Of a stretch of DNA of 64,000 nt, positions 5 through 17,618 are shown piece after piece. Within the stretch, counting starts at the first letter, position 1, and each line of letters opens with the position of its first letter. The notes below the pieces were generated by a model. That model did no database searches and had not been told where the DNA came from. It was given only the letters and a program-made list of their open reading frames with translations. This DNA comes from a virus. Location: IMG/VR virus record IMGVR_UViG_3300007760_001418, positions 1 to 64,000 of that record. The stretch is one strand, 5' to 3'. A program made the position numbers and the translations under genes.

Positions 5-190
5 ATGCAGCCAGGTGATTTAGTGCGTATAAAGGGCAAGGGAAGATTCGCAAAAGAGGCTGTAGCTATAGGGATCCTTGTTGAGTTTGATACTGTTGAG
101 CCTGATGGTGGGTGGGTTGTTATGATAGGCGATAAAATTGAAACGTATGTTACAACCTGGTGGGACTGTGAGGTGGTCGATGAAAGCTGA
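5..190 (+). CDS. Small SH3-like 'GDLV' protein
   Basis: A 61-residue protein starting MQPGDLVRI and ending EVVDES. It is the first visible member of a family of 55-85 residue proteins in this window that share an N-terminal K/QxGDLV strand, a central glycine-hydrophobic strand (GILVEF) and a C-terminal EVV/EVI. The pattern resembles a small SH3 or KOW-type beta barrel, but that fold is inferred. The last codons contain GAGGT followed by an ATG that starts the next gene, so the genes overlap by 11 bases and are probably translationally coupled. Function unknown. The gene lies at the window edge, so a longer upstream chain may exist. Confidence 0.75.
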   Translation: MQPGDLVRIKGKGRFAKEAVAIGILVEFDTVEPDGGWVVMIGDKIETYVTTWWDCEVVDES

Positions 191-374
191 TAACGTTATA
201 AAGAAAGTACTTTGGTGGAGATTAATTTCTATCCTTATAACCGTGGTAGCAATATATGCAGTCACCGGTGACATCAAGTCAGCAACAGGTATTACGATAT
301 ACCTACATATTTTACTAACTGCTAGCCACTATATTTTTGAGAAGACATGGGAAAAACTACGTGAAGATTGGTGA
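180..374 (+). CDS. DUF2061 family small membrane protein
   Basis: A 64-residue protein with two hydrophobic segments (about residues 10-27 and 32-50). The spacing and motifs follow DUF2061: a basic N terminus with an LWWRLIS segment, AVTGDI between the helices, and a C-terminal FEKTWEKL helix comparable to the HERVWxRI end of that family. DUF2061 proteins are short two-helix inner-membrane proteins of unknown function. The start at 180 is chosen because GAGGT lies just upstream inside the preceding gene and the start overlaps that gene's end, as at other junctions in the chain. Its presence inside a GDLV chain is odd, because every other member near it is soluble. Confidence 0.72.
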   Translation: MKADNVIKKVLWWRLISILITVVAIYAVTGDIKSATGITIYLHILLTASHYIFEKTWEKLREDW

Positions 375-570
375 TTTGGTTACGGTAAATCCGGCCAAGG
401 CAGGATTGTATCTGATCATCGATGAAGATCCTGCCAGAGAAAGCATGCATGTTGTCAACGAACTCAATGCAATTGCACTTGGAAAACTGTATATACTTTA
501 TGACCCTGAAGCGGTACAAGCTATAGAGATGCATGAAAAATGGATAGAGGTAATCAGTGAAGGTCGGTGA
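361..570 (+). CDS. Small SH3-like 'GDLV' protein
   Basis: A protein of 69 residues read from the GTG at 361 (VKIGDLVTV), ending EVISEGR. An upstream ATG at 337 is possible, but the GTG aligns exactly with the start of the other family members and overlaps the end of the DUF2061 gene. It shows the family pattern: a GDLV strand, a hydrophobic LYLIIDEDP strand, a variable middle and a terminal EVI. The final codons supply GAGGT and the GTG of the following gene. Function unknown. Confidence 0.72.
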   Translation: MKIGDLVTVNPAKAGLYLIIDEDPARESMHVVNELNAIALGKLYILYDPEAVQAIEMHEKWIEVISEGR

Positions 571-766
571 TTTAGTAAGAATGCTTCCGAAGAATTATAG
601 TAGTCACGGAATACATCTCCCAGATCAGTGGGCCGGATTGATAGCCATAGTAACGAATGATCTCGGCGGAATGTTTAGCGTTTTAATTTATCACCCTGAT
701 GATGCGATGCCATCTGAGATAATGGTTAATAGTAGGGACGTTGAGGTAATCAATGAAGATCGGTGA
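557..766 (+). CDS. Small SH3-like 'GDLV' protein
   Basis: A 69-residue protein starting at GTG 557 (MKVGDLVRM) and ending EVINEDR. The start codon lies 11 bases inside the preceding gene and 5 bases after its GAGGT. The internal AGLIAIV and MFSVLIY strands alternate with turns, consistent with a small all-beta protein. It has no cysteines, signal peptide or membrane segment. It is most similar in layout to the next gene and to the 6.2-6.8 kb group. Function unknown. Confidence 0.75.
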   Translation: MKVGDLVRMLPKNYSSHGIHLPDQWAGLIAIVTNDLGGMFSVLIYHPDDAMPSEIMVNSRDVEVINEDR

Positions 767-1001
767 CCTGGTGGTTCGCGCGTACGCGTATCACGCATTC
801 ATTCCTGGCATTATCGTCGACGAAGAATATAATGAGATCTCAGATGTAGATCATGATTTAGCCTACACAGAACATAATTTTACCGTAGCCTGGTCAGATA
901 ATAATACATCTCGTGAAATGGATGTAGAGTTAGATTATTTAGAAGATGCCCTTGAGGCAATGCAAGAACTCATGGAAGAGGATGAACAGAATGAAAGTTG
1001 A
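753..1001 (+). CDS. GDLV protein with acidic C-terminal tail
   Basis: An 82-residue protein starting MKIGDLVVR at ATG 753, preceded by GAGGT inside the previous gene. The first 65 residues follow the family pattern (GIIVDEE, FTVAWSD strands). It then differs: a strongly acidic helix (LEDALEAMQELMEEDEQNES) replaces the usual EVI ending. Consistent with this, the next start (991) is supplied by a different sequence, and this is the last member of the first chain. Function unknown; an acidic tail could mediate protein contact, but that is inference. Confidence 0.73.
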   Translation: MKIGDLVVRAYAYHAFIPGIIVDEEYNEISDVDHDLAYTEHNFTVAWSDNNTSREMDVELDYLEDALEAMQELMEEDEQNES

Positions 1002-1431
1002 ATTACAGAATGAATTGTTTGAAAAGTATCCAAAGATTTTTCGGCAAAAAGATTTACCTATGCAAGAGACATGCATGTGCTGGGGTATTGAGACTGGTGA
1101 TGGGTGGTATAATATCATTGATATGTTATGTCTTCAAATTGAATGGCATACTGCACATAACCTAAAGAAGGATGAAGATTCAGACCTGGTTCAAGTTGAA
1201 GCTGTACAGGTTAAGGAAAAGTATGGTACCCTGAGGTTCTATTATAATGGAGGAAATGAATTCATCCATGGGCTTGTGTCAATGGCTGAGGGTATGTCTG
1301 GGCGTACGTGCGAGGAGTGCGGTGCACCTGGAACGCAAAATAATACCGGCTGGATCAAGACACAATGTGTACCATGTAGAGATAAACAAGGTCTGCGCTG
1401 GGAAAAGGGTACGCAGGGTGGAGCTGGCTAG
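991..1431 (+). CDS. Conserved phage protein with C-terminal zinc-binding motif
   Basis: A 146-residue protein. The start at ATG 991 overlaps the end of the preceding gene and follows its GAGGATGAAC. The N-terminal half has CMCWGIETGDGWYNIID, and the centre reads QVKEKYGTLRFYYNGG. The C-terminal part has CEECGAPG and then a second CxxC pair (CVPC), a likely treble-clef or zinc-ribbon site. This layout recurs in hypothetical proteins of many phages, where the role is unknown. It ends convergently with the minus-strand gene at 1428. Confidence 0.72.
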   Translation: MKVELQNELFEKYPKIFRQKDLPMQETCMCWGIETGDGWYNIIDMLCLQIEWHTAHNLKKDEDSDLVQVEAVQVKEKYGTLRFYYNGGNEFIHGLVSMAEGMSGRTCEECGAPGTQNNTGWIKTQCVPCRDKQGLRWEKGTQGGAG

Positions 1432-1718
1432 TCGAACGTAAACTTAAGTGCCAACCTAAGCTGGTGCTCTAAAGGATCACTTTCAAACTTAGGTAACTTA
1501 AGTACATAACGTGGCTCTAGAAGAAATACATCACTGACTTTCCATGCTAAGCCGGCATCAAAACTTGTACGAAGTAATTTTTTTTCTGATAGCTTAAACT
1601 CAACGCTGGTGAACAGTTGATCATAGCCCACCCGAATTCTATTAGAAGCCCATGGCCCGTCTTTTGCTATAGCACTAGCGGACAGTAGCAACGATAAGAA
1701 TATGATCAATATTTTCAT
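1428..1718 (-). CDS. Secreted protein, possible small outer-membrane barrel
   Basis: A 96-residue protein with a clear signal peptide: a lysine start, a hydrophobic core (ILIIFLSLLLSASAIA) and a likely AIA-K cleavage near residue 18. The mature part alternates polar and hydrophobic residues in strands (RIRVGYDQ, SVEFKLS, FDAGLAWKV, LRLALKFTF) and ends in phenylalanine plus Asp, reminiscent of outer-membrane beta-barrel ends. This suggests an export-targeted protein in a Gram-negative host. It is on the opposite strand to its neighbours and overlaps the gene at 991 by four bases. Confidence 0.6.
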   Translation of the reverse strand: MKILIIFLSLLLSASAIAKDGPWASNRIRVGYDQLFTSVEFKLSEKKLLRTSFDAGLAWKVSDVFLLEPRYVLKLPKFESDPLEHQLRLALKFTFD

Positions 1719-1827
1719 GTTTATAACTAGTATTATCCTACGATAATCGTGTGACAGGAGTATAACAAAGTTTGCATTATTACTTATACAGGCATGATAT
1801 ACTGGATATACTTAGTTCACGTTAGGA

Positions 1828-2502
1828 AATAAACGTTCTTTGAAATTCTATGCGACCCCGGTTCTCGGGTCCTAAAATCCAGGTGGAATTACTGGCTCCT
1901 GGATATCAACGGAAGTTGATAGTAGAGAAAACCTCGATTGGGAAGGTGCTGTTCTTACGGCATGCCGCCCTACTAAGAGAGGGGATGAGTAAAGGGGAGT
2001 GACATCCCTGAAAATCATCCAGTGATCTAAAGTAAGAGCCCTCTTGTCACAGAGGGAGTGCTGCTGAAGGTATCCGCGGACTTGTAGATTCATCGTGGAA
2101 ACGGGATAAGGGCAACCCAGACTACTCTGAAAGGAGTTGAAAAAGTCTTGGGAAGGGGGGTTAAAATCCTCTAGAATCTGACTGTCGTTGGCAGAAGCCT
2201 CTCTGATGAAACCGGCAACGGTTTTATCGTCCCGAAAGGGGTTATGTGGACTTTCTCCCAAGGATCGGAAGCATGACGCGCAAAAGCGGGGGGAAGTGTA
2301 CAGCTTACCCAACTGAGCGCAGAATGTCAATGACAGTAGAACGTGCTGTTCCGTGGTTTTTACGAGCCAAGAACAGGGAGGAATCTTGTGAACGGTTTTA
2401 CTTGCCGGTGTGTTCACATCTAACCCCAAGAGGGGGACAGGCTCAAAAGGCTTGATGGTCATGAGAACGAGAAGCCCTGGAATGCTGGGCTTCTTTTTTT
2501 TT
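1828..2502 (+). ncRNA. Large structured non-coding RNA candidate (GOLLD/ROOL-like class)
   Basis: About 675 bases without a credible gene that fold into many stems on the plus strand. Stems seen: 1877-1883 with 1898-1904; 1904-1910 with 1915-1921 around a GGAA loop; 1982-1987 with 2003-2008; 2039-2044 with 2051-2056; 2071-2075 with 2104-2108 enclosing a CGT-GGAA-ACG hairpin; 2147-2153 with 2256-2262 at long range; 2209-2214 with 2219-2224 around GCAA; CCC-GAAA-GGG at 2231-2240; 2388-2393 with 2412-2417; 2424-2427 with 2432-2435. CGTTCT at 1834 can pair with AGAACG at 2464, closing the whole RNA just before a strong terminator. Multiple GNRA tetraloops and a closing stem are features of ornate phage RNAs such as GOLLD and ROOL. 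Membership in either class is inference. Confidence 0.7.
2471..2502 (+). terminator. Rho-independent terminator of the structured RNA
   Basis: A perfect seven-base-pair stem, GAAGCCC at 2471-2477 with GGGCTTC at 2487-2493, encloses a nine-base loop and is followed by nine T residues. It sits directly after the 3' strand of the RNA closing stem. Confidence 0.9.
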
Positions 2503-2527
2503 CGAAATAAAAGGAGTGATAACAATC

Positions 2528-2770
2528 ATGCAAACGTCTACTAATACAAAGTATTTTGTTGCTGCATTTGCGGCTGTTGCATTATTCTTTGCCGGCTATA
2601 CCTATTTTGGTTCCGACACTGATGCAACTGACAATACGGCAGCTACGGCAACTATCACTGCGCCAGCCTCAAATTATATTGAGAATGCGCAGCCAGCAGT
2701 ACAGACTGGGCCCACCAATGTCGCACCCGCGAATGGTGAGGTTGAAGCTGATGCCAGCACAACAAAGTAA
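2528..2770 (+). CDS. Small signal-anchored or exported protein
   Basis: An 80-residue protein. ATG 2528 is preferred over GTG 2516 because AAGGAG lies 11 bases upstream of the ATG and directly abuts the GTG. Residues 8-28 form one hydrophobic segment (YFVAAFAAVALFFAGYTYF). The remainder is low-complexity and rich in Thr, Ala, Asp and Asn, typical of a periplasmic or extracellular linker. No known domain is recognised. It follows the structured RNA and its terminator and is followed by a bidirectional terminator, so it is probably monocistronic. Confidence 0.6.
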   Translation: MQTSTNTKYFVAAFAAVALFFAGYTYFGSDTDATDNTAATATITAPASNYIENAQPAVQTGPTNVAPANGEVEADASTTK

Positions 2771-2799
2771 TCTAACGTAGTTACATAGATTTCGATTCG

Positions 2800-5695: not shown

Positions 5696-5772
5696 TGTTC
5701 CCCCTCTAGTTTAAGTATACACCATGGAGCAGTAGATGGTTATAACTTTTATTTCACAATAAAGTTATCATC

Positions 5773-5801
5773 GTGCATTAATGCTTCTTCCATGATATAA
5801 T
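5773..5801 (+). promoter_or_regulatory. Promoter, GTGCAT-17-TATAAT
   Basis: GTGCAT at 5773-5778 and TATAAT at 5796-5801 with a 17-base spacer and an extended -10 TGA. It belongs to the GTGCAA-17-TATAAT set seen at 8332, 9320, 9764, 11340, 13076, 13260 and 14448. The expected start near 5808 places it just before the GDLV chain at 5819-6977. Confidence 0.75.
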
Positions 5802-5818: not shown

Positions 5819-6076
5819 ATGGATCCTCACCACATGGGAAGAAGCACAGTGAAGAAGGGTGACATCGTTTTTTTGGATGACTACTACTACGGTGACGTCA
5901 TAACTGGGATTGTACTTACCACCGGACGAGGCAAGCTCGAAGGGCACTATGAGATCATGACTGCCTGCCGAACGACCGAAATACCATATACTTTCTGGAC
6001 ATACCGGGAAGATCTGATGTCCATGGATGAGTGGGAAGAGTGGGGCAAGGAAGAGTACGGAGAGTTGCTGCGATGA
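5819..6076 (+). CDS. GDLV-family protein, first of the second chain
   Basis: Up to 85 residues. The start is uncertain: ATG 5819 lies only about 11 bases from the predicted transcript start, and ATG 5834 and GTG 5849 (VKKGDIVFL) are in frame; the last aligns best with the family. It shows the GDIV strand, GIVLTTG strand and TFWTYRED segment, then an acidic helix (MDEWEEWGKEEYGELL) in place of EVI. It overlaps the next start at 6073. Function unknown. Confidence 0.65.
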   Translation: MDPHHMGRSTVKKGDIVFLDDYYYGDVITGIVLTTGRGKLEGHYEIMTACRTTEIPYTFWTYREDLMSMDEWEEWGKEEYGELLR

Positions 6077-6246
6077 CTATGAAGATTGGCAACATGGTAA
6101 GACACAAGCTCTCTGAAGGTGGGTTGTTGGGTATTATTATCGGATACCACCAAGCTATCGAGTCTGCAGATCCAACCTACCTTGTTAAGTGGTCAGACGG
6201 CCGACTTAATTGGGTACTGCAACGATTGATGGAGCCAATTCAATGA
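6073..6246 (+). CDS. Small SH3-like 'GDLV' protein
   Basis: A 57-residue protein beginning MTMKIGNMVRH at ATG 6073, which overlaps the previous stop; ATG 6079 is an alternative. GIIIGYHQ and TYLVKWSDGRLNWV are the central strands. Among the members this looks most like a chromo-like or SH3 barrel (VKWSDG). It ends MEPIQ, where GGAG supplies the ribosome site for the gene at 6243. Function unknown. Confidence 0.7.
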   Translation: MTMKIGNMVRHKLSEGGLLGIIIGYHQAIESADPTYLVKWSDGRLNWVLQRLMEPIQ

Positions 6247-6443
6247 AGCCCGGTGATATGGTACAAATGGTAACCGGCCTTCCGGATTACAGGACTAACC
6301 CCCGTAATAATGGGATCGTAATAAACATCCAGCGACCGTCTGCATTTCGCAGGATTGCTATTGTTATGTCGAATACCGGCGAGATCATGAGCTGGCCACT
6401 CGACAGCCACTACGAAGTCAGGGTGATCAATGAAGCCCGGTAA
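6243..6443 (+). CDS. Small SH3-like 'GDLV' protein
   Basis: A 66-residue protein, MKPGDMVQM to RVINEAR. ATG 6243 is chosen because it overlaps the stop of the previous gene and aligns with the MKPGDMV starts of its paralogues. The strands NGIVINIQR and IAIVMSNTG surround a variable loop. The end of the gene carries the AGGGTGATCAATG that starts the following member. Function unknown. Confidence 0.75.
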   Translation: MKPGDMVQMVTGLPDYRTNPRNNGIVINIQRPSAFRRIAIVMSNTGEIMSWPLDSHYEVRVINEAR

Positions 6444-6627
6444 CCATGTCAAAGAAGGTGATCTGATTAGGGCACATGGTTGTATAGCCCTAGTACTGGA
6501 AGTGATTCCGGCTAATACTACAGAGTATCAAAAGACCCCTCGGCTTCGAATCCTAAGTGATGACGGCCGGAGTTGGGTGACTCGACTTAACTACACAAAA
6601 TGGAGTATCATCAATGAAGCCCGGTGA
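6430..6627 (+). CDS. Small SH3-like 'GDLV' protein with duplicated start segment
   Basis: A 65-residue protein, MKPGNHVKEGDLIRA to SIINEAR. It has the family MKPG twice in effect: MKPGNHV followed at once by VKEGDLI. This looks as if the standard start cassette was joined to a second copy of the first strand. IALVLEVIP and RLRILSDDG are the likely core strands. It begins 14 bases before the previous stop. Function unknown. Confidence 0.75.
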   Translation: MKPGNHVKEGDLIRAHGCIALVLEVIPANTTEYQKTPRLRILSDDGRSWVTRLNYTKWSIINEAR

Positions 6628-6814
6628 CATGGTAACATGGAAGCAAAGACCAGACCTGAGAGGTGAGGGCTTTCCCCCATATCGACGACTCGGCCTTATC
6701 CTCCAACGAGATCCCCCATACCAACAACGGGACTTCGAGGTACTCTGGCTAGAGAGTCAAAATACAACGTATCATAATGAAGATGGACTGGAGGTAGTCA
6801 GTGAAGCTCTTTAA
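6614..6814 (+). CDS. Small SH3-like 'GDLV' protein
   Basis: A 66-residue protein, MKPGDMVTW to EVVSEAL. The strands LGLILQRD and DFEVLWLES alternate with turns. The GAGGTAGTCAGTG at its end encodes EVVSE and simultaneously provides the ribosome site and GTG start of the coiled-coil gene at 6801, which shows that the coupling cassette also serves non-family genes. Function unknown. Confidence 0.75.
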   Translation: MKPGDMVTWKQRPDLRGEGFPPYRRLGLILQRDPPYQQRDFEVLWLESQNTTYHNEDGLEVVSEAL

Positions 6815-8387: not shown

Positions 8388-9011
8388 ATGGCCCGCAATA
8401 AGAACAAGAGTCTGCTCCAGAAAGCCAAACGCGCCCGTCAAGAGCGTATCGACGCGTCGCTAGCGGATTTGTCCAACAAAATCAACCAGTTAAGTGAGGC
8501 CGGCCTACACCTGAACGACGACGAAACGTACACACCTGAGTATGCCAAGCTGATTGCTCAGCTTAACCAGGTGCACGAAGAACGTGATGAGTTCGAAGAC
8601 AACCAACGAGAACGCAACATTCAGAAGCTGCGGGCCAAGGACGAGCTACGTCAGGCCAAGCTGGATCACGGACTCAGGGTGGGTAAGGTAAAGAATAACA
8701 TCCAATGGGCACCTGGTGGTATGGACATGGTGCCTGGTCGTAAGGATTGCGACGCCAAGTTCTTCGGAGCACAGGAGGCGGGACTGGCTAAGGTATCTCG
8801 CGATATTGGGCGCTGGGAAACCCTGGACCCATATGCAAATGCAAGAGGAGTGAATAAGGGCGAGATTGTCATGATCATCTCTGAGAAGTACCAGGTCGAG
8901 ACCGGCTATGGACGCAAGATCAAAACAAAGTGGGCAGTCGACGTCATGGTCGGGCCTCACGTAGTCAAGGCGATCCCCGCAGCAGCGCTTCGCCCGTTGG
9001 AAGAAGATTAA
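8388..9011 (+). CDS. Coiled-coil protein with C-terminal SH3-like domain
   Basis: A 207-residue protein. ATG 8388 follows AAAAGGA and the promoter at 8332. The first 100 residues are a basic and charged helix (KSLLQKAKRARQERIDASL, LNQVHEERDEFEDNQRER). The centre has a Gly-Met-rich linker and KFFGAQEAGL. The last 50 residues (GVNKGEIVMIISEKY, KTKWAVDVMVGPHVVKAIP) follow the GDLV-type strand pattern, so this may be the family domain fused to a helical arm. Function unknown; expressed from an early-type promoter. Confidence 0.7.
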   Translation: MARNKNKSLLQKAKRARQERIDASLADLSNKINQLSEAGLHLNDDETYTPEYAKLIAQLNQVHEERDEFEDNQRERNIQKLRAKDELRQAKLDHGLRVGKVKNNIQWAPGGMDMVPGRKDCDAKFFGAQEAGLAKVSRDIGRWETLDPYANARGVNKGEIVMIISEKYQVETGYGRKIKTKWAVDVMVGPHVVKAIPAAALRPLEED

Positions 9012-9853: not shown

Positions 9854-10936
9854 ATGGATATCAAAACCTTCAATCTCGTCGCTACCAAGCTTCCCCCGGA
9901 GATCGCGATTCTTCTTCGCGGACCGACAGGGGTCGGTAAGTCTTTCCTGGCTAACCAGGTGGCAAAGAACCTTGAGCTTCCTTTCATCGACGTCCGCGGT
10001 TCTACCATGTCCGAAGGTGATGTTGGTGGTTACCCCGATGTTGAGGGTATGAAGGAAAATGGTATCATGACCTTCTGCATGCCATCCTGGTTCATCCGGG
10101 CATGCCGAGAGCCTGTTGTCCTGATGCTGGACGAGCTTAACCGCTCCCTCCCCGGTGTCCAACAGTCCTTCTTCCAGCTGGTCCTGGACCGAGAGTTGGG
10201 TAACGACGCTAACGGCGTTCCTTACCGCCTCCACCCGCAGACCAAGGTCATCGCGGCTGTCAACCACGGCGCTGAGTACGACGTCAACGAGATGGACCCC
10301 GCATTGCTGCGGCGCTTCTGGACTGTGGACCTTGAGCCCACCTCCGAAGATTGGATCACCTGGGCTACTGCCGAAGGTCTTGACCCGGTGGTCATCGACT
10401 TCATTCGTCAGAATCCTGCCCACCTCCGAGTCGACCCTTCTACGGTTGAGCCTGGTACGGTGGCTCCGAACCCCGCTTCCTGGCACCGCCTGGCAGAGAG
10501 CCTGGTCCACATGGGCTACGCTCCGGCTGACCTCGCTGGTAAGGAAAGGGCTCCTGGCTTCTACGCTGTCGCCCTGGGCTTCGTCGGTACCGAAGCTGCT
10601 ATCTCCTTCACGACCTTCGTTGAGGGTTACGAGATGGTGGTCAGCGCCGAGGACATCCTGGACGACTACAAGGGCAACAAGGAAAAGGTTGCTGCCCTTA
10701 CGAACGATCGCCTTAACGCGGTTATCGAGAAGATCGCTAACCACTGCAAGGAAAATGAATGGAAGCTGAATCAGGCCAAGAACGTCGCGGCCTTCGCTGA
10801 AAGCCTCCCTGGTGAGATGATGGTCTCCCTTTGGAACACCATCTCGGCTACCCAGAAGTTGCCGAACATCCAGAAGATGCACAAGTTGATTGGACAGAAG
10901 ATTGTCAAGGCAGTCCAGTCCAGCCGAAACCTTTAA
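9854..10936 (+). CDS. MoxR-type AAA+ ATPase
   Basis: A 360-residue AAA+ ATPase. Walker A is GPTGVGKS (23-30), Walker B VVLMLDELNR (88-97), sensor 1 AAVNH (135-138) and an arginine pair DPALLRRFW (149-156) supplies the finger. The early position of Walker A and the short insertions fit the MoxR/AAA_5 group, which act with VWA-domain partners to remodel protein complexes. The partner here is the DUF2201-type protein at 11392, two genes downstream. The start follows an AAGGAG site and a promoter of the GTGCAA set. In phages the target of such pairs is unknown. Confidence 0.88.
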   Translation: MDIKTFNLVATKLPPEIAILLRGPTGVGKSFLANQVAKNLELPFIDVRGSTMSEGDVGGYPDVEGMKENGIMTFCMPSWFIRACREPVVLMLDELNRSLPGVQQSFFQLVLDRELGNDANGVPYRLHPQTKVIAAVNHGAEYDVNEMDPALLRRFWTVDLEPTSEDWITWATAEGLDPVVIDFIRQNPAHLRVDPSTVEPGTVAPNPASWHRLAESLVHMGYAPADLAGKERAPGFYAVALGFVGTEAAISFTTFVEGYEMVVSAEDILDDYKGNKEKVAALTNDRLNAVIEKIANHCKENEWKLNQAKNVAAFAESLPGEMMVSLWNTISATQKLPNIQKMHKLIGQKIVKAVQSSRNL

Positions 10937-10944
10937 GATTACCC

Positions 10945-10993
10945 AGGAGGGTGCAACCCTAGTAACAGGTTAAGCTGACTAGGGTTCGCCCCT
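10945..10993 (+). promoter_or_regulatory. Long intercistronic hairpin
   Basis: AACCCTAGT 10955-10963 pairs perfectly with ACTAGGGTT 10978-10986, extended by GAGGG against CCCTC with an internal mismatch. There is no T-run, so it is more likely a processing or mRNA-stability element between the MoxR gene and the gene at 11012 than a terminator. Confidence 0.6.
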
Positions 10994-11011
10994 CGCACTT
11001 AGGAGAAAAGA

Positions 11012-11287
11012 ATGGAACTCTCAAACATCCTTAATGAACTCAATGGCCTCAATGTTGATCAGCTACGTATTTTGAATAATGCTGTCTATGATCGCCTCAA
11101 GGATGCTCGCAATAGGGACTCCGCAATCAAGCGTCGCACCCTACGTGCTGGTGACCAGGTATCTTGGACCGGTCGCAATGGGTACACGGAAGGTGTCATC
11201 GTCCGGGTCAAGCGTAAGAAGGCTATCTGCGATGTGGGTAGTGGGCGTAACTGGGATGTACCCCTCAGCATGCTGACGGCAGTCTAA
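11012..11287 (+). CDS. GDLV-related protein with N-terminal helices
   Basis: A 91-residue protein. Residues 1-40 are helical (ILNELNGLNVDQLRILNNAVYDRLKDAR). Residues 43-91 are a compact barrel-like segment: TLRAGDQVSWTG, EGVIVRVKRKKAICDV and GRNWDVPLSMLTAV. This C-terminal part closely follows the pattern of the small GDLV proteins and of hypothetical KOW-like domains. It lies between the MoxR ATPase and its likely VWA partner. A good AGGAG site precedes ATG 11012. Function unknown. Confidence 0.72.
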   Translation: MELSNILNELNGLNVDQLRILNNAVYDRLKDARNRDSAIKRRTLRAGDQVSWTGRNGYTEGVIVRVKRKKAICDVGSGRNWDVPLSMLTAV

Positions 11288-11339
11288 AAAGATTAATAAT
11301 ATCAATAGGTTACATAATACTATTTATTTTAGCATACCC

Positions 11340-11368
11340 GTGCAAAAAAGCCTGGCATGTTGTATAAT
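11340..11368 (+). promoter_or_regulatory. Promoter, GTGCAA-17-TATAAT
   Basis: GTGCAA at 11340-11345 and TATAAT at 11363-11368 with a 17-base spacer. The leader to the VWA gene is very short. Confidence 0.88.
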
Positions 11369-11391
11369 GTATATGTAATCAAGGAATGGAT

Positions 11392-12783
11392 ATGGCAACA
11401 CCACAAACGACAGCTAACGACCTCCCCATCGCAGGGGACCTCGCGACCGACATCGAAGCCAACAACTTCGAGTTGGACCCACATCTCATCAGCCTCCTCT
11501 GGAGTGAGCCCTTCTTCAGCAAGATCCTTAGGGTCGTAACGAAGGTCCGCACCGACAGCATCCCTACCGCAGGGGTCCTGGCCAAGGACGGCGACATCAA
11601 GATGTGGTGGAACCCAAAGTTCCTCGCTAGCCTCACACCTGATCAGGTGAAGGGGCTTCTAAAGCATGAGTGTTACCACCTGGTGTTCGAACACACCACC
11701 ACCCGGCGACACGATCCCCACATCATTTGGAACTATGCCACTGACCTGGCCATCAACTCTCTTATCCCAGAAGAGGAGCTCCCCGAGGGTGGCCTCATTC
11801 CTGGTAAGGCCTTTAAGGAGCTTTCCGATAAGGACAAGGCGATGATGGGACCGGACGCAGTTGGCCGGTACGAGCGGGTATCCGCAAAGATTGAATCCTT
11901 CCCCAAGGAGATGGCATCCGAGTGGTACTTCGCTGAGCTTCAGGAAGTGGCCGACGATATCCAAAAGGGTAAGGAAGATGGTGAAGGCCAGCCCGGAGAC
12001 GGCGAAGGCGAAGGGGAAGGTCAAGGACCTGGTCAGCCTGGTGGACAACCTGGTAACGGACCCGGTATGCCTGGGCCGATGGACGACCATGATGGTTGGG
12101 ACCAGCTCTCTGATGAAGATCGCGAATTGCTGAAGGGCAAGGTCAAGCAGGCCGTTGAGGATGCTGTCAAGGAATGTGACCGGAATGGTCAATGGGGTTC
12201 GGTTGGCGGAGGTACCCAGAAGGTGCTCCGGGAGCTCATCTCCAAGGAGATCCCCTGGCAGACAGTGCTGAAGAAGTTCTGCGGAATGACCCGCCGGGCC
12301 AATCGCGCTACCAACATCCGACGCCTCAACCGGAAGTACCCGGCTATTCACCCTGGCTTCCAAAAGGGCTACACCTCCTCCATCGCAGTCTACATCGACC
12401 AGAGTGGTTCGGTTAGCGATGCTGAGTTGGAGCTGTTCTTCGGAGAGCTTCGGAGCCTGGCCAAGCGGACTGAGTTCACCATCTACAACTTCGACACCGA
12501 GGTTGATACGGATAGCGAACGAGTCTGGAAGAAGGGTCGTACCCCTTACGCCGGTCGGACCCGTTGCGGAGGTACTTGCTTCACTGCTCCTACGGAGCAT
12601 GCAAATAAGAATAGTGCCAAGTTCGATGGCTACCTCATCCTCACTGATGGTGAGGCTAGCGATCCTGGACCTTCTCGGTTGAAGCGAGGATGGGTCATTT
12701 GCCCCGGACAGAAGCTTTACTTTGAGGCCTCGAAGAGGGACTTCGTTATCAACATGAAGGAACCCAAGAAGGTGGCAGCATGA
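11392..12783 (+). CDS. DUF2201-type metallopeptidase-like / VWA protein
   Basis: A 463-residue protein with two domains. The N-terminal part has HECYH at 92-96, an HExxH zinc-peptidase motif within LLKHECYHLVFEH. An acidic, Gly/Pro-rich linker follows (about 195-235). The C-terminal part is a VWA-like domain with the metal site DQSGS (D336, S338, S340) and GYLILTDGEASD. This is the layout of COG3864/DUF2201 proteins, which are encoded beside MoxR-type ATPases. ATG 11392 has AAGGA at six bases; ATG 11386 abuts it and is less likely. It has its own GTGCAA promoter. Confidence 0.85.
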   Translation: MATPQTTANDLPIAGDLATDIEANNFELDPHLISLLWSEPFFSKILRVVTKVRTDSIPTAGVLAKDGDIKMWWNPKFLASLTPDQVKGLLKHECYHLVFEHTTTRRHDPHIIWNYATDLAINSLIPEEELPEGGLIPGKAFKELSDKDKAMMGPDAVGRYERVSAKIESFPKEMASEWYFAELQEVADDIQKGKEDGEGQPGDGEGEGEGQGPGQPGGQPGNGPGMPGPMDDHDGWDQLSDEDRELLKGKVKQAVEDAVKECDRNGQWGSVGGGTQKVLRELISKEIPWQTVLKKFCGMTRRANRATNIRRLNRKYPAIHPGFQKGYTSSIAVYIDQSGSVSDAELELFFGELRSLAKRTEFTIYNFDTEVDTDSERVWKKGRTPYAGRTRCGGTCFTAPTEHANKNSAKFDGYLILTDGEASDPGPSRLKRGWVICPGQKLYFEASKRDFVINMKEPKKVAA

Positions 12784-13022
12784 AGCTAGGTAAGGATGTC
12801 AAGGCTTATATTGATAAGAAGCTAGGTGACACTAAGGACGAGAACCAAATGCGTGTGTACCAGGTCCTCATTGAGGGGTATTGGGCAGGTGAGTTGGATA
12901 TAAACCCAACCACCAAAGCCGTGATGCTTGTAGAGGATCCTGTGCCCCGCGTGGCAACACCGGTAGATGCGGTGATCACTGGAGCTATTATGCAGGCTAT
13001 GTCCGGGGGTGGGAAAAAGTAA
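12780..13022 (+). CDS. Hypothetical protein coupled to the VWA gene
   Basis: An 80-residue protein whose ATG overlaps the VWA stop (ATGA). A lysine-rich start (MKLGKDVKAYIDKKLGDTKDE) leads to a helix and then a Pro/Val/Ala-rich tail ending GGGKK. No domain is recognised. Coupled translation suggests a small accessory to the MoxR-VWA pair. Confidence 0.65.
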   Translation: MKLGKDVKAYIDKKLGDTKDENQMRVYQVLIEGYWAGELDINPTTKAVMLVEDPVPRVATPVDAVITGAIMQAMSGGGKK

Positions 13023-13075
13023 ATAATATTAGGTAGTTAGAGTGTTAAAAAGAATTGCATTGATCTGTCACATGC

Positions 13076-13104
13076 GTGCAAGATCTGCCTTCCTGTTGTA
13101 TAAT
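13076..13104 (+). promoter_or_regulatory. Promoter, GTGCAA-17-TATAAT
   Basis: GTGCAA at 13076-13081, 17-base spacer, TATAAT at 13099-13104. It drives only the 41-residue gene at 13127 before the next promoter. Confidence 0.85.
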
Positions 13105-13126
13105 AGTATCATAAGGAAGGTTGGTA

Positions 13127-13252
13127 ATGGCAAACATCGCAAACATCACACTCGCTATCCTCCTCGCCGCTCAGATGGCCGGCGCAATGACAGCACGTCA
13201 GGGGACAGCAGCTGTGACTATGGCTGACGCAATTACCTGCAATATTAATTGA
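13127..13252 (+). CDS. 41-residue hydrophobic microprotein
   Basis: ATG 13127 is preceded by AAGGAAGG at good spacing and by a promoter of the GTGCAA set. The peptide has a hydrophobic helix ANITLAILLAAQMAGAM followed by a polar Thr/Ala-rich end with one cysteine. The helix is only about 15 residues, so it may lie at the membrane surface rather than span it. The stop at 13250-13252 is followed within eight bases by the next promoter, so the gene is its own unit. Function unknown. Confidence 0.55.
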   Translation: MANIANITLAILLAAQMAGAMTARQGTAAVTMADAITCNIN

Positions 13253-13259
13253 CAGGCCC

Positions 13260-13288
13260 GTGCAAATAACGCCTGCATAGGGTATAAT
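13260..13288 (+). promoter_or_regulatory. Promoter, GTGCAA-17-TATAAT
   Basis: GTGCAA at 13260-13265 and TATAAT at 13283-13288, spacer 17. The leader shares its first 26 bases with that of the 9764 promoter and forms TTGGG-GAGGAA-CCCAA. Confidence 0.9.
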
Positions 13289-13350
13289 ATACTTGATGGT
13301 TGGGGAGGAACCCAACCGGTAACGGCAACCAAGACCAAGGAGAAAGCCAA

Positions 13351-14100
13351 ATGAAACTCAACGTACGCAAAGACGATATCGCCGTCGGCACCAACATCCT
13401 AGACGTGGAGGTCCCCAAGCGACTCCGCAACAAGCACAAGTCAGGCCTCGAGTATATCGATTGCGCCTTGGGCGGCCAGGGCTTTACGCCGACTGCAGTG
13501 ACCTTCTTCACCGGTACGCCGGGCTCTGGTAAGACTACCATGATGCTGACCTTGGCTGATGCCATCACCCGCTCCGGTGGGGTGGCACTGTTCAACACTG
13601 CTGAGGAATCCCTCTTCCAGGTCAAGCTGGTCGTCGAACGCCTGAAGTTCAAGAAGGGCTTCATCGCTGGCCAGGAAAATCATATTCCTACGCTGCTTAA
13701 GAATTGTGATAAGATTCGCAAGGCCAATCCCGGGAAGCCTTTCTTCCTGATCGTTGACAGCCTCCAGTGCATGGACGACGGTAAGTACACCGACGGCCAC
13801 ACCAACAGCAAGACTGCTGAGCGGTCCTTGGCCCTTATCACCGATTACTGCAAGGAGCATTACTGCAATGCCATCGTCATCGGCCAGGTCAACAAGTCTG
13901 GTCAGATGGCTGGTACCAACAAGCTCAAGCACATGGTCGACGCCATGATGCACCTCTCTGTAGAGGAAAAGGACAAGGACCTCGAAGGTTGCCGCGTCCT
14001 TCAGACGACGAAGAACCGGTTCGGTGGCTGCGGTCACACCTTCTTCCTGGCTCTGAATAAGAATGGATTCAAAGAGGTGGCTCGGGTCTCTGCTGCTTAA
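13351..14100 (+). CDS. RadA-like RecA-fold ATPase, core domain only
   Basis: A 249-residue ATPase. Walker A GTPGSGKT is at 55-62, Walker B FLIVDSLQ follows, then QVNKSGQMAGTNKLKHMVD and TTKNRFG, where KNRFG (221-225) is the RadA/Sms signature. RadA drives branch migration in recombination; the usual N-terminal four-cysteine zinc finger and C-terminal Lon-like domain are both absent here. The start follows AAGGAG and a GTGCAA promoter, and a strong terminator follows. It could act in phage recombination or replication restart; without the zinc finger its DNA preference may differ. Confidence 0.83.
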   Translation: MKLNVRKDDIAVGTNILDVEVPKRLRNKHKSGLEYIDCALGGQGFTPTAVTFFTGTPGSGKTTMMLTLADAITRSGGVALFNTAEESLFQVKLVVERLKFKKGFIAGQENHIPTLLKNCDKIRKANPGKPFFLIVDSLQCMDDGKYTDGHTNSKTAERSLALITDYCKEHYCNAIVIGQVNKSGQMAGTNKLKHMVDAMMHLSVEEKDKDLEGCRVLQTTKNRFGGCGHTFFLALNKNGFKEVARVSAA

Positions 14101-14747: not shown

Positions 14748-14766
14748 GATCAAGGAGAAAAAAGAT

Positions 14767-15048
14767 ATGCCAGTGATTGATGGAAAATATAGAAATTGGG
14801 AAAAGGGTGATATGTGTACCTACGCACGGGTGTTAAACCCAGTGCCGGTATTCCTAATCAGCCGAGGTACATATCAAGGTCATGATTGTGATGAGTTTGG
14901 TGAACCAGCGTTTTGGAGTGCTGTCGACATTATCAACCCAGAGACCGGCCAGGAGCGTAAGATGTGTAAGGCTAGTCATCTCAAAGTAATCGAAGAAAAA
15001 GACTACATCCGGAGTGATGCAGCAAAGGAGCTAGGGATCAATGGGTAG
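14767..15048 (+). CDS. GDLV-related protein
   Basis: A 93-residue protein starting behind AAGGAGAAAAAAGAT. WEKGDMCTYARV, VFLISRGTYQGHDC, WSAVDIINPETGQERKM and SHLKVIEEKDY fit the strand order of the GDLV barrels, in a longer version. Three cysteines are scattered. It overlaps the next gene by eight bases. Function unknown. Confidence 0.68.
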   Translation: MPVIDGKYRNWEKGDMCTYARVLNPVPVFLISRGTYQGHDCDEFGEPAFWSAVDIINPETGQERKMCKASHLKVIEEKDYIRSDAAKELGING

Positions 15049-15250
15049 GATTAATTTTTCAGATGGGGAAGTATTCAACACATGTGGGCCTGTCCGCGCA
15101 GAGCAGCGTAAGGATGGGTGGTATGTCATGGGTAAGGGTATGCTGATCCCAGTAGACAATATGGCAGAAGCAATTAAGCTTGTATGCGAGCATAAGGCCA
15201 AGGCCTTGGTTGCTGATAAGAAGAAAGAAGATGATACCTCCGAAGCGTAA
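15041..15250 (+). CDS. Hypothetical small protein
   Basis: A 69-residue protein (MGRINFSDGEVFNTCG) with two short beta segments, a helix (NMAEAIKLVCEHKAKALV) and a lysine/acidic tail. It overlaps both neighbours, so it sits in a coupled operon with the genes at 14767 and 15231. No domain is recognised. Confidence 0.6.
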   Translation: MGRINFSDGEVFNTCGPVRAEQRKDGWYVMGKGMLIPVDNMAEAIKLVCEHKAKALVADKKKEDDTSEA

Positions 15251-15434
15251 ACGAATTTGTCCTAAGAAAGGGCACCTGGTCGAGTACCCCAGCGGGCCCG
15301 CGCCAGCAGCCGGGTTCTCTCCATCACAGGTTGGACTAGTAGTCAATACAGTGGGTATCCACCTGCACATCCTGGCTGGCGATGGTACTATAATCAAAGG
15401 GGTGCGTAGGGATAGTGTTGAGATCGTCGGATGA
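15231..15434 (+). CDS. Small GDLV-related protein with basic N terminus
   Basis: A 67-residue protein from ATG 15231 (MIPPKRKRICPKKGHLVEY) to DSVEIVG. KKGHLVEY takes the place of GDLV, QVGLVVNTVG and HLHILAGDG are the core strands, and VEIVG is the ending. GAGATCGTCGGATG at the end gives the start of the gene at 15431. Function unknown. Confidence 0.65.
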   Translation: MIPPKRKRICPKKGHLVEYPSGPAPAAGFSPSQVGLVVNTVGIHLHILAGDGTIIKGVRRDSVEIVG

Positions 15435-15754
15435 GTATACCAAAGAGTAGAGGGAATGTAGTCGTGAATAAAAAGAGAATCCGCAAGGCAGTAAAGAAAC
15501 ACCAGAAAAGACTTAGTGCAAATGAGAGAGCGTTATTCGCCCAAAGGCGACGCCTCCTTGAAGGTAGCCTAATCACTCAGTCCGATGTCTTCGAGGGCGC
15601 CATGGTAGTCCAACATATCAGAGGCAGTCAATACCTGGTGCGTCTCAGTACCGGTGAAGAGGTATACGCTAGCCACAAGCGCGGGAAGGACGAAGCTCTA
15701 GATGATCGCCATGAAGTGACCTTCAGTCACGGTGGATGGTCCATATGGGAATGA
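15431..15754 (+). CDS. Basic helical protein with C-terminal barrel-like segment
   Basis: A 107-residue protein. The first half is very basic (VVNKKRIRKAVKKHQKRLSANERALFAQRRRLLEG) and could bind nucleic acid. The second half (VFEGAMVVQHIRGSQYLVRLSTGEEVYASHK) follows the small barrel pattern. It overlaps both neighbours by four bases. The pairing of a basic arm with a barrel resembles the genes at 8388 and 11012. Function unknown. Confidence 0.63.
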   Translation: MSIPKSRGNVVVNKKRIRKAVKKHQKRLSANERALFAQRRRLLEGSLITQSDVFEGAMVVQHIRGSQYLVRLSTGEEVYASHKRGKDEALDDRHEVTFSHGGWSIWE

Positions 15755-15948
15755 CGATCGGTGCCCTTGTGCGACCTACCGGACCGGCCACCCGACAACT
15801 ACAGCATGGTGTCCCGTTGGTTGAAGAAGAGTGGATTGGTATCATCATTGGGTTCGACTACGGTGACCCGATAGTCATGTGGAACGAGAAATTTCCAAAT
15901 GAGTTAGAGTATCGAGAACAACTCGAGGTAATCAGTGGACCCGATTAA
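15751..15948 (+). CDS. Small SH3-like 'GDLV' protein
   Basis: A 65-residue protein from ATG 15751 (MTIGALVRPTG), overlapping the previous stop, to LEVISGPD. The strands WIGIIIGFDYG and PIVMWNEKF form the core. GAGGTAATCAGTG at 15925-15937 encodes EVIS and provides the ribosome site and GTG for the next gene. Function unknown. Confidence 0.72.
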   Translation: MTIGALVRPTGPATRQLQHGVPLVEEEWIGIIIGFDYGDPIVMWNEKFPNELEYREQLEVISGPD

Positions 15949-16132
15949 GGTAGGCCAACTCGTTAAGATGGCAACCGGCCACCATTTCAGGGATAGATAT
16001 GGATATGGCATAGTCACAGCTGTCGATGGTTACTACATGTGGGTCTGGTTCGCCGCCATCGCCGGCAATGGAGCTGGTGGGTTCAAGTGGTGTGAATGGA
16101 ATGCAGTGGAGGTAATCAGTGAAGCTAGGTGA
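15935..16132 (+). CDS. Small SH3-like 'GDLV' protein
   Basis: A 65-residue protein from GTG 15935 (MDPIKVGQLVKM) to EVISEAR. GYGIVTAVDG and MWVWFAAIAG are the core strands. Two extra residues precede KVGQLV compared with its paralogues. It is linked to both neighbours by the GAGGTAATCAGTG cassette. Function unknown. Confidence 0.74.
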   Translation: MDPIKVGQLVKMATGHHFRDRYGYGIVTAVDGYYMWVWFAAIAGNGAGGFKWCEWNAVEVISEAR

Positions 16133-16346
16133 CCTGGTGCGACTAATCGACCCGAACGCGTACGCGGGTAACGTCATGCCTCCCGGGTCTGTTGGCCTGG
16201 TAATGAAGGTAGAGAAAACGCGGAACGACTATAAGGATGTTGTCGCGGAGGTCATGTGGCACAAGCACCGATATCATAATGCAGACCCAACAAAATTCCC
16301 GAGGTACCTGGCAGGAGCACTCGAGGTGGTCAATGGAGATGGGTGA
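16119..16346 (+). CDS. Small SH3-like 'GDLV' protein
   Basis: A 75-residue protein from GTG 16119 (MKLGDLVRLI) to EVVNGDG. VGLVMKVEK and VVAEVMWHKHRYH are the core strands. The longer loop after the second strand is His- and Asn-rich. The ending GAGGTGGTCAATG starts the gene at 16333. Function unknown. Confidence 0.74.
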   Translation: MKLGDLVRLIDPNAYAGNVMPPGSVGLVMKVEKTRNDYKDVVAEVMWHKHRYHNADPTKFPRYLAGALEVVNGDG

Positions 16347-16557
16347 CTTATTCATATGCCATACCACCCAGTCGACTTATCTTATGGTACCAGATATCGG
16401 TGACGCAATTATAGACGATTGGGGGGTAATGGCCGGCAAGTACGGAATCATCATAGACCCCGAGCCCGTCAAGTATTGCGACAAGCAAATCATCTTGGTA
16501 TTAATAGATGGAGGTGTGGGGTATATCGGCAAGGCACTAATCAAGGTGCTCCCATGA
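16333..16557 (+). CDS. Small SH3-like 'GDLV' protein
   Basis: A 74-residue protein from ATG 16333 (MEMGDLFICH) to LIKVLP. It has GKYGIIIDPEPV and IILVLIDGG strands, recalling the LYLIIDEDP and LIIEVEPA strands of the genes at 361 and 16904. AAGGTGCTCCCATG at its end encodes KVLP and starts the next gene. Function unknown. Confidence 0.72.
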   Translation: MEMGDLFICHTTQSTYLMVPDIGDAIIDDWGVMAGKYGIIIDPEPVKYCDKQIILVLIDGGVGYIGKALIKVLP

Positions 16558-16799
16558 AGCCCGGTGATCTCGTAGTCTTCGACGCGGACATTGTCAAAAG
16601 GATATTCCCAGTAGGCCTGTTTGATGGGGATATGGGGACAATACTATCCGAGTGTGTACCAGGTGATCTGAGGAATCGTGGTGGCCCGTACCCACATATA
16701 GAGACCCCTTGTTGGTGGGTGCTATGGTGGACTGGTGATTACGCCGGTCAAAAGATATACTGTGAAGAACAATACCTACGGGTACTCGGCATTGCGTGA
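16554..16799 (+). CDS. Small SH3-like 'GDLV' protein
   Basis: An 81-residue protein from ATG 16554 (MKPGDLVVFD) to YLRVLGIA. It is longer than average and tryptophan-rich in the second half (CWWVLWWTGDYAGQKIYC). It is the last of the uninterrupted chain that starts at 15751; a 104-base gap follows. Function unknown. Confidence 0.72.
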   Translation: MKPGDLVVFDADIVKRIFPVGLFDGDMGTILSECVPGDLRNRGGPYPHIETPCWWVLWWTGDYAGQKIYCEEQYLRVLGIA

Positions 16800-16903
16800 C
16801 TCACCTATCCCCATGTATACACCGGCCCTCGGAGCTTTTATTGCATACCGCGGTGTACAAGGCGGCACTCCCTACTTATCTTTAATATACCTGTGGAGAA
16901 AGC

Positions 16904-17374
16904 ATGAACCCTGACGACTACGACTGGAAGAAATACGAGGCATTACTTGAAACTTATAAGGAGCGCAATGGCTGGCCCGACAAGTACAAGCAATTCGAGG
17001 ATGCCTTCTATGATTTTGGCTTCAACAGGGATGGACAGTATGGAAAAAAATACACGTATGATATTGCACGTGAGGTAAAAGACACGTGGGCTGACTTCGA
17101 TATTAACGATATCGAGGAAGCGCCGGCTAGCATAAGGAGTACTCGGCCGCCTTGTCTCACTATCTTCAAGCCTGGAGACCTCGTGCTGTTCTATGCACAC
17201 AATGTGTATGATGATGCTGAACAACTTATCCATGCTGGAGGTAATCGGATCGGACTTATCATCGAAGTCGAACCCGCTAAGGAAGAGCCTGACGTCATGG
17301 CTCTCGTTATCGACGGTACTACACAACAACACCGATGGATCTTGGTCAACGACCTTGAGATAGCGAATGGGTGA
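16904..17374 (+). CDS. Two-part protein with C-terminal GDLV domain
   Basis: A 156-residue protein. Residues 1-80 are acidic and aromatic, mostly helical (YDWKKYEALLETYKERNGW). Residues 85-156 are a full GDLV unit (FKPGDLVLFYAHNV, GLIIEVEPAKEE, WILVNDLEIANG). It appears to be a fusion of the barrel to a new N-terminal domain. GTGGAGAAAGC precedes ATG 16904. The end overlaps the start of the gene at 17367. Function unknown. Confidence 0.7.
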   Translation: MNPDDYDWKKYEALLETYKERNGWPDKYKQFEDAFYDFGFNRDGQYGKKYTYDIAREVKDTWADFDINDIEEAPASIRSTRPPCLTIFKPGDLVLFYAHNVYDDAEQLIHAGGNRIGLIIEVEPAKEEPDVMALVIDGTTQQHRWILVNDLEIANG

Positions 17375-17618
17375 AAAACCCTCGAGCCGCAAACGACATC
17401 GTTGGAGTTTGGAGCCCGGGGACCTGGTCCAAGTAATAAACCCTCGGCCGCCTCTCGAGTCTAGTGCACGCCCGATCGGGATGGTGCTTTCAATATACTC
17501 GGCAAACGTATATGAGGGTTCGTCCGCCGATATACTGGTGGGCCGTCGGAAATTGTGGATTGAGACGAAATATTTGATCAGAATCGATCCAGATTCCGAT
17601 ATCTCTGTTATTTCTTAA
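17367..17618 (+). CDS. GDLV-family protein with basic N-terminal extension
   Basis: An 83-residue protein. A basic extension (GEKPSSRKRHRW) precedes the unit LEPGDLVQVINP, with GMVLSIYS and ADILVGRRKLWI as strands. It is the last member of the third chain and lacks the EVI ending that elsewhere carries a ribosome site, in keeping with there being no gene directly after it. Function unknown. Confidence 0.68.
   Translation: MGEKPSSRKRHRWSLEPGDLVQVINPRPPLESSARPIGMVLSIYSANVYEGSSADILVGRRKLWIETKYLIRIDPDSDISVIS

What the first reader, a model, noticed from the sequence alone, without database searches (positions are those of the whole stretch)
5..17618. Large family of tiny 'GDLV' SH3-like proteins, about twenty paralogues
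Members lie at 5, 361, 557, 753, 5819, 6073, 6243, 6430, 6614, 15751, 15935, 16119, 16333, 16554, 16904 (C-terminal) and 17367. Related units occur at 8388 (C-terminal), 9013, 11012 (C-terminal), 14767, 15231, 15431 (C-terminal), 19579 and 22952. Most are 55-85 residues with a KxGDLV start, a central GxIxxI strand and an EVI/EVV end, yet their middles share almost nothing. Some are fused to helical or basic arms. So many diverged copies of one small barrel suggests a rapidly evolving set of binders, such as anti-host-defence or host-takeover factors. The fold is inferred.
Basis: partly seen in the sequence, partly recalled or inferred. Interest (0 to 1): 0.85.

Follow-up and report, generated by a model that had tools for sequence, protein, structure and literature searches.

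The report
Shuffled arrays of tiny barrel genes
A large environmental phage carries three strings of tiny one-domain barrel proteins whose genes overlap by a fixed 14 letters, and comparison with over a hundred other viral contigs shows that whole genes are swapped in and out exactly at these overlaps, so the phage appears to collect and exchange ready-made small proteins of still unknown target.

Summary
Thirteen of the sixteen main units, plus 19579, match one family profile; 17367, 5819 and 16333 are weaker members and 15231 is possible. Units 8388, 9013, 11012, 14767, 15431 and 22952 are not supported. Similarity extends beyond the GDLV start, and the predicted fold is an SH3-like barrel (KOW/PsaE/Tudor type).

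New findings: (1) The EVI/EVV end and ESR tail are partly not protein signals. GAGGTRATC is the Shine-Dalgarno of the next gene, and the tail overlaps its start (ATGAARNNNGGTGA, 14 nt); the GD motif supplies the upstream stop codon. (2) The same arrays occur on at least 109 contigs (1,311 members, up to 37 per contig). (3) Whole cassettes appear or vanish exactly at this junction, also between this phage and a relative. Gene order decays far faster than sequence. (4) Orthologues evolve under purifying selection (median dN/dS 0.22, none above 1), so the repertoire, not the residues, changes fast. (5) Unrelated ORFs, including membrane proteins, carry the same junction.

Most likely this is an exchangeable operon of small early effectors, shuffled by homologous recombination at a ribosome-binding junction. 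The binding target is unknown; host takeover or counter-defence is plausible but untested.

The parts
5..190 (+). GDLV barrel protein, 61 aa; its first 14 nt (ATGCAGCCAGGTGA) also end a frame cut off by the contig start (..VNAAR*)
   Evidence: profile E 1.7e-10; sequence
180..374 (+). small membrane-protein cassette inside array 1 (not a barrel); L050 holds a relative that opens with the junction start VKVGD
361..570 (+). GDLV barrel protein
   Evidence: E 1.2e-6; second AF2 model, same strand order, pLDDT 67
557..766 (+). GDLV barrel protein
   Evidence: E 1.5e-9
753..1001 (+). GDLV barrel protein with acidic C-terminal extension
   Evidence: E 2.5e-6; middle test 0/195
5819..6076 (+). probable GDLV barrel protein, first gene of array 2
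   Evidence: E 0.2; middle test 2/200
6073..6246 (+). GDLV barrel protein; 98% identical orthologue in G001
   Evidence: E 3e-8
6243..6443 (+). GDLV barrel cassette, precisely absent in relative G001 between two TCAATGAAGCCCGGT repeats
   Evidence: E 1.9e-9; alignment
6430..6627 (+). GDLV barrel protein; 88% identical orthologue in G001
   Evidence: E 2.2e-5
6614..6814 (+). GDLV barrel protein (modelled); replaced by a different barrel cassette in G001
   Evidence: E 2.8e-13; AF2 pLDDT 84.9, pTM 0.70
15231..15434 (+). possible divergent barrel unit
   Evidence: middle test 0/194; whole-profile E 4.8
15751..15948 (+). GDLV barrel protein
   Evidence: E 7.6e-7
15935..16132 (+). GDLV barrel protein
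   Evidence: E 2e-10
16119..16346 (+). GDLV barrel protein
   Evidence: E 2e-9
16333..16557 (+). probable divergent barrel protein
   Evidence: E 1.5; middle test 1/200
16554..16799 (+). GDLV barrel protein
   Evidence: E 1.6e-5
16904..17374 (+). protein with a C-terminal GDLV barrel
   Evidence: E 2.2e-5, residues 89-154
17367..17618 (+). GDLV barrel protein with basic N-terminal arm
   Evidence: E 0.001; middle test 0/197
19579..19806 (+). isolated GDLV barrel protein
   Evidence: E 2.4e-5
361..374 (+). 14-nt overlap junction GTGAAGATTGGTGA (membrane protein / 361)
547..570 (+). junction: SD GAGGT in codons EVI, then 14-nt overlap 557-570
743..766 (+). junction: SD GAGGT, 14-nt overlap 753-766
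6430..6443 (+). 14-nt overlap junction ATGAAGCCCGGTAA
6614..6627 (+). 14-nt overlap junction ATGAAGCCCGGTGA
6791..6814 (+). junction (SD GAGGT, 14-nt overlap) leading into an unrelated coiled-coil-like ORF at 6801
15925..15948 (+). junction: SD GAGGT, 14-nt overlap
16109..16132 (+). junction: SD GAGGT, 14-nt overlap
16323..16346 (+). junction: SD GAGGT, 14-nt overlap
5772..5801 (+). copy of a repeated promoter-like element (CGTGCA..TATAAT) directly upstream of array 2

Best explanation
The window holds three operon-like arrays of single-domain SH3-like barrel proteins. Each array is a string of gene cassettes joined head to tail by one conserved junction, TGGAGGTRATCA-RTGAAAGTCGGTGAYTTGGT. In one frame the junction encodes the C-terminus of the upstream protein (L-E-V-I-S/N-E-S-R-stop). 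It also carries the next gene's Shine-Dalgarno, which is complementary to the 16S rRNA tail, and in a second frame its start (M-K-V-G-D-L-V). So cassettes are translationally coupled, and the GGTGA of the GD motif is the upstream stop codon (shown from sequence; coupling itself inferred). Because every cassette begins and ends with the same 20-45 nt, homologous recombination between junctions (strand annealing or a phage recombinase; enzyme inferred) removes, inserts or replaces one or several whole cassettes, and the reading frame and ribosome-binding site survive. The arrays are therefore an exchangeable repertoire fed by a large pool shared among environmental phages. Each barrel is kept by purifying selection and, with no shared catalytic residue and widely varying charge, most likely binds its own partner. 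Made early as small non-essential effectors, they would tune host proteins or block defences. That last step is inference (about 0.35).
For: Junction: of 1,246 neighbouring pairs 630 overlap by exactly 14 nt. In the stretches not chosen by pattern, 30 of 69 members do, and there are nine such junctions in the window. RBS role: the E codon of C-terminal EV[VI] is GAG 374: GAA 8 when a start follows by 14-nt overlap, 88:19 otherwise, 1280:1459 in gene interiors; the motif occurs in 69% versus 30%. The unbiased subset shows the same direction but is small (GAG 14:1 coupled, 8:2 uncoupled; motif 15/30 versus 12/38). Exchange: every indel that contains barrel genes (1, 2 or 8 genes) has both breakpoints within -19 to +33 nt of a barrel start codon, with 19-47 nt repeats; indels without barrel genes do not. 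In the window, cassette 6243 is absent from G001 between 15-nt repeats and 6614 is replaced. Downstream neighbours are conserved in 86% of pairs at 95% identity or more, 27% at 80-95, 11% at 60-80, 1% at 40-60, versus 100% (15 pairs at 80% or more), 72% and 35% for other genes. Few in-contig duplicates (13 pairs at 60% or more). Unrelated ORFs carry the same junction. Fold. Selection. Charge spread.
Against: Most comparison loci were chosen by a junction pattern, which inflates junction statistics; the unbiased subset (69 members) is small and its motif difference is weak. Metagenome assemblies can mis-join at short repeats, although the window versus G001 case (flanks about 80-90% identical) is hard to explain that way. 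No expression, coupling or binding was measured, and no recombinase was tied to the junction. About 10 indel comparisons carry the breakpoint argument and some share contigs.
Confidence: 0.68

Rival explanations
1. Tandem duplication followed by divergence in place: the arrays grew by unequal crossing-over, the fixed overlap is inherited from one ancestral unit, and there is no exchange between phages.
For: All arrays share the same 14-nt overlap, as start-to-start duplication would give; a few in-contig duplicates at 70-90% identity exist.
Against: Only 13 in-contig pairs at 60% identity or more among 1,311 members, while 1,072 have a relative on another contig; order is lost between phages that share 80-95% identical cassettes; unrelated ORFs sit at the same junctions.
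Confidence: 0.15
2. The junction is conserved only as a translation signal (SD plus coupled start), and recombination at it is an incidental by-product of having many similar short sequences.
For: The conserved nucleotides are largely those expected of an SD and start; GAG is favoured most where a start follows. Cluster K mycobacteriophages carry start-associated repeats with a proposed translation role (PMC3203893).
Against: Codon 3 of the start is GTC in 347 of 428 overlapped and 144 of 236 non-overlapped starts versus 21% in interiors, a nucleotide preference that SD pairing does not explain. Not exclusive of the best explanation: it differs only in whether exchange is selected.
Confidence: 0.3
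3. The barrels share one job as KOW/NusG-like nucleic-acid or ribosome/RNA-polymerase binding modules, as proposed for the KOW domain of early T4 MotB.
For: Best profile matches in the PDB are Spt5 KOW (E 2e-5) and NusG KOW (0.02); VIA-align Z 7.7 to Spt5; MotB is an early T4 protein predicted to carry a KOW domain (PMC7827196).
Against: Net charge centres on 0 with a wide spread (5-95%: -8 to +6); no conserved surface residue stands out beyond core positions; equal structural matches to PsaE, R67 DHFR, PWWP and Tudor; no match to MotB itself.
Confidence: 0.2
4. One reading: fast-evolving binders under an arms race, diversified by residue change.
For: Very low pairwise identity between neighbours; 825 of 971 clusters at 60% identity are singletons.
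Against: dN/dS median 0.22, none of 212 above 1, close to control genes.
Confidence: 0.1
5. Assembly artefact: short-read assemblers mis-join at repeated junctions and create apparent indels and shuffling.
For: The sources are metagenome contigs and the repeats are 19-47 nt.
Against: Breakpoints keep coding and RBS intact; shuffling is seen at all divergence levels; the G001 indel lies in diverged sequence.
Confidence: 0.06

Closest known systems
PeSLs of T4-like phages (mobile promoter / stem-loop regulatory cassettes; Arbiol 2010, Comeau 2014, as cited in PMC4503421)
   Same: Short conserved regulatory sequences between small early genes serve as homology for module shuffling.
   Different: Here the shared sequence is a ribosome-binding/start/stop overlap inside coding sequence, not a promoter plus terminator, and it lies at single-gene pitch (mean about 184 nt).
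Start-Associated Sequences (SAS) of Cluster K mycobacteriophages (PMC3203893)
   Same: Repeated short sequence at the RBS of many small non-structural genes of different families, with pairing to the 16S tail.
   Different: SAS is 13 bp with 11-19 copies per genome and lies upstream of starts; no cassette indels at it were seen in the passages read. Here the repeat spans the start codon, fixes a 14-nt overlap and marks indel breakpoints.
KOW / NusG-Spt5 SH3-like domains and PsaE
   Same: Fold and weak profile similarity.
   Different: No gathering-level family match; KOW motif membership not met; context and size differ.
DUF4314 (PF14192), a small phage SH3-like family
   Same: Similar fold (a BFVD match is an annotated DUF4314 protein of Proteus phage phiP4-3).
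   Different: The PF14192 profile finds nothing in this phage or five array-bearing records.
Early T4 protein MotB (KOW plus OB fold; PMC7827196)
   Same: Small early phage protein with a predicted SH3-like KOW domain acting on the host.
   Different: hhalign probability 2%; T4 holds no detectable member of the family.
Integron gene-cassette arrays
   Same: Works like a cassette array: string of exchangeable small genes (recalled from general knowledge).
   Different: No attC-type structure or integrase was specifically searched for; the border here is the translation junction itself.

Membership tests
SH3-like barrel fold (superfamily level) | five-stranded barrel, variable b1-b2 (RT) loop, short helix before b5 | tested here: met
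   AF2 of 6614: strands 6-9, 27-32, 40-45, 50-55, 59-63, pLDDT 84.9; leading PDB profile hits and structural matches are SH3-like barrels; model of 361 has the same order at pLDDT 67
SH3-like barrel fold (superfamily level) | sequence profile relation to solved SH3-like barrels | tested here: met
   A2 profile: Spt5 KOW E 2.2e-5, PsaE 0.02, NusG 0.02, HERC2 0.1
Pfam KOW (PF00467) | match above the curated cut-off | tested here: not met
   1 of 95 members at E 0.009, too weak to be a family-level match
DUF4314 (PF14192) | match to the family profile | tested here: not met
   no match at E 10 in six records
Known PHROG family | consistent match to one PHROG | tested here: not met
   95 members: ten different PHROGs, at most 2 members each, best E 3.7e-4, no function given
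Known defence or anti-defence family | match in PADLOC-DB (defence proteins only) | tested here: inconclusive
   one member at E 0.02 to a methylase model; PADLOC does not cover anti-defence proteins
T4 MotB | homology of the KOW domain | tested here: inconclusive
   hhalign prob 2%, 14 columns, single MotB sequence as template
PeSL-type shuffling | conserved repeats between genes coincide with indel breakpoints | tested here: met
PeSL-type shuffling | repeat is an early promoter plus stem-loop terminator | tested here: not met
   junction lies inside coding sequence and holds SD, start and stop; the promoter-like repeats are separate elements
Integron | attC sites and integrase | not tested
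   no dedicated attC or integrase search was made

The most novel reading that the evidence does not exclude
A coupled ribosome-binding junction (SD, start and stop in about 30 nt) acts as a general recombination border, giving environmental phages integron-like arrays without a dedicated site-specific recombinase, which collect and trade small effector genes, mostly SH3-like barrels aimed at many different host targets.
Probability: 0.35. Interest if true: 0.82.

Novelty: new variant of a known kind. Interest (0 to 1): 0.64.

Why it matters
Large phages are full of tiny unannotated genes. Here more than a thousand of them, on at least 109 contigs, reduce to one fold and one border sequence. 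That explains how such regions turn over without breaking expression, and gives a simple handle (the junction) for collecting a large library of likely host-interaction proteins. It also warns that conserved protein ends (GDLV start, EVI-ESR end) can be nucleic-acid signals rather than protein function.

Tried and rejected
Pfam, PHROGs, NCBIfam and PADLOC scans of single members and of 95 members: no consistent family. tblastn of single members or the consensus in phage and plasmid collections: no convincing match. Junction DNA in isolate phages: only chance-level hits. DUF4314 membership: no. MotB homology: not shown. Literature on tandem SH3-like arrays, DUF4314 and hypervariable cassettes: nothing relevant; the two PeSL papers are not held. 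Generic sigma-70 scan no better than shuffles. Host: G001 equals contig PBIO01000025.1 (same length) binned in a Halobacteriovorax MAG; within that MAG members lie only on contigs C16 and C25, so this is a weak host lead.
Full report
What the window is. It is the first 64 kb of an 87,820-bp IMG/VR virus record. PhoH relatives lie in phage contigs of up to 242-293 kb, and the record carries a tubulin/FtsZ-like gene (weak match), PhoH, a tmRNA and a tRNA, and large tail- and fibre-like genes (inferred from size and sequence). It is best read as a fragment of a jumbo phage.

Observation. The ORFs exist. A profile built from 15 window members was refined over 142 loci (10,439 ORFs) and gave about 1,360 members at E<1e-3. 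After duplicate stretches were removed there are 1,311 members on 109 contigs, median 11 per contig, maximum 37. Consensus: MKVGDLVRLKDGHKEDGGVGIVVEVDEDDSGGGRVKVLWLDGGEIRWEDESDLEVISESR. With ends removed and a profile trained on other phages, 16 of 17 accepted or probable members beat about 98% of shuffles or more.

Fold. AlphaFold2 with 95 family sequences gives a five-stranded barrel with a helical turn before the last strand (pLDDT 84.9, pTM 0.70). A second, divergent member gives the same strand order at lower confidence (67). Both models used family alignments, so they are not fully independent of the one-family assumption. A profile search of the PDB returns SH3-like barrels at the top: Spt5 KOW, PsaE, NusG KOW, HERC2, uL24. 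Foldseek and VIA-align list PWWP, PsaE, Spt5 KOW, R67 DHFR, Tudor and NdhS, with Z below 8 and no E<0.001. Conservation sits in the start, G20, the b2 core, V37, W39 and the last strand; insertions concentrate in the b1-b2 and b2-b3 loops.

The junction. In the window, nine neighbouring gene pairs overlap by exactly 14 nt. Across loci 630 of 1,246 neighbouring pairs do, and 101 overlap by 4 nt. The stop codon of the upstream gene is the TGA inside GGT-GAY of the next gene's Gly-Asp. The codons for Glu-Val-Ile (GAG GTR ATC) match the complement of the 16S tail (GAUCACCUC, established knowledge) and sit where a Shine-Dalgarno should be. If they were only protein signal, codon choice should look like the interior. 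It does not: GAG:GAA is 374:8 before an overlapping start, 88:19 otherwise, 1280:1459 inside genes. Caveat: most loci were found with a pattern that includes GAGGT. In loci not chosen that way the direction is the same but numbers are small (14:1, 8:2, interior 83:119). Codon 3 prefers GTC (81% of Val in overlapped starts, 61% in others, 21% inside), which SD pairing does not explain.

Exchange. Among closely related loci, indels containing barrel genes (one, two or eight genes) always break near a member start with 19-47 nt direct repeats; indels without members break elsewhere with 1-16 nt. Between the window and G001, cassette 6243-6443 is missing exactly between two TCAATGAAGCCCGGT copies, and the position after 6430 holds a different barrel. 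At 80-95% protein identity the downstream neighbour is conserved in 27% of pairs (11% at 60-80, 1% at 40-60), against 3 of 3, 72% and 35% for other genes (the control is small at high identity). In-contig duplicates are rare. Of 417 distinct ORFs that open with RTGAAAG.CGGTGA, 366 have a barrel-like middle, but a few are membrane, helical or other proteins, so the border travels with unrelated genes. One example is a relative of the membrane protein at 180-374.

Selection and function. Orthologous middles have median dN/dS 0.22, none of 212 above 1; large genes in the same loci 0.17. The proteins are therefore used, and are not racing at residue level. Charge varies widely around zero and no catalytic residue is conserved, which argues for different partners on one scaffold rather than one shared nucleic-acid function. 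Array 2 is directly preceded by one copy of a repeated promoter-like element (CGTGCA..TATAAT; 8 copies on the + strand between 5772 and 14447, one on the - strand). Small, co-directional, promoter-fed, non-structural genes of variable content fit early host-interaction effectors, as is known for T4-type early regions (established knowledge). The partner is unknown.

Comparison with the known. Short regulatory repeats that mediate module shuffling are known (PeSLs, cited in PMC4503421), as are start-associated repeats (PMC3203893), and KOW-containing early proteins exist (MotB, PMC7827196). What I did not find described is a coding-sequence junction that is at once SD, start, stop and exchange border, nor this family; its members match no database family consistently. 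Only open-licence literature could be searched.

Verdict. Real, wider than reported, and reinterpreted: modular cassette arrays with a functional border, not a set of fast-mutating proteins. Function of the barrels remains open.

Noticed in passing
window 1819-2543 (+): A probably non-coding stretch 84% identical to G001 (L019), ending in a strong terminator and folding far better than shuffles (z -4.3), with no Rfam match beyond chance: a candidate large structured RNA of about 650 nt.
   Followed up: partly
window 30280-34757 (+): The phage carries the bacterial stress trio DUF444 (YeaH-like), SpoVR and PrkA kinase side by side, in that order.
   Followed up: partly
window 38091-39353 (+): Weak tubulin/FtsZ GTPase match (E 1e-6, below Pfam cut-off), possibly a phage cytoskeletal protein, just after a phage-encoded tmRNA (37722-38086).
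   Followed up: no
window 5772, 8331, 9319, 9763, 11339, 13075, 13259, 14447 (+); 7694 (-): Nine copies of a promoter-like element CRTGYA-N-TATAAT with a non-canonical upstream box, probably the phage's own early or middle promoters.
   Followed up: partly
window 9854-14100: Neighbouring AAA_5 ATPase and DUF2201 metallopeptidase/VWA-like protein, followed at 13300 by a KaiC/DnaB/UvsX-like ATPase.
   Followed up: no
L146 / L142 (PBIO01000025.1, PBIO01000016.1): The closest relative found (G001, 101,404 bp) is binned in a Halobacteriovorax MAG, a weak hint that predatory bacteria could be hosts.
   Followed up: partly
BFVD accessions A0A516M732 to A0A516M7R5: Many serially numbered small viral proteins match the barrel model, suggesting another deposited phage with a similar array.
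   Followed up: no
all loci, codon 3 of barrel genes: Strong GTC preference for Val3 of MKVGD even where no upstream barrel gene overlaps; not explained by the Shine-Dalgarno or by the reading frames.
   Followed up: partly
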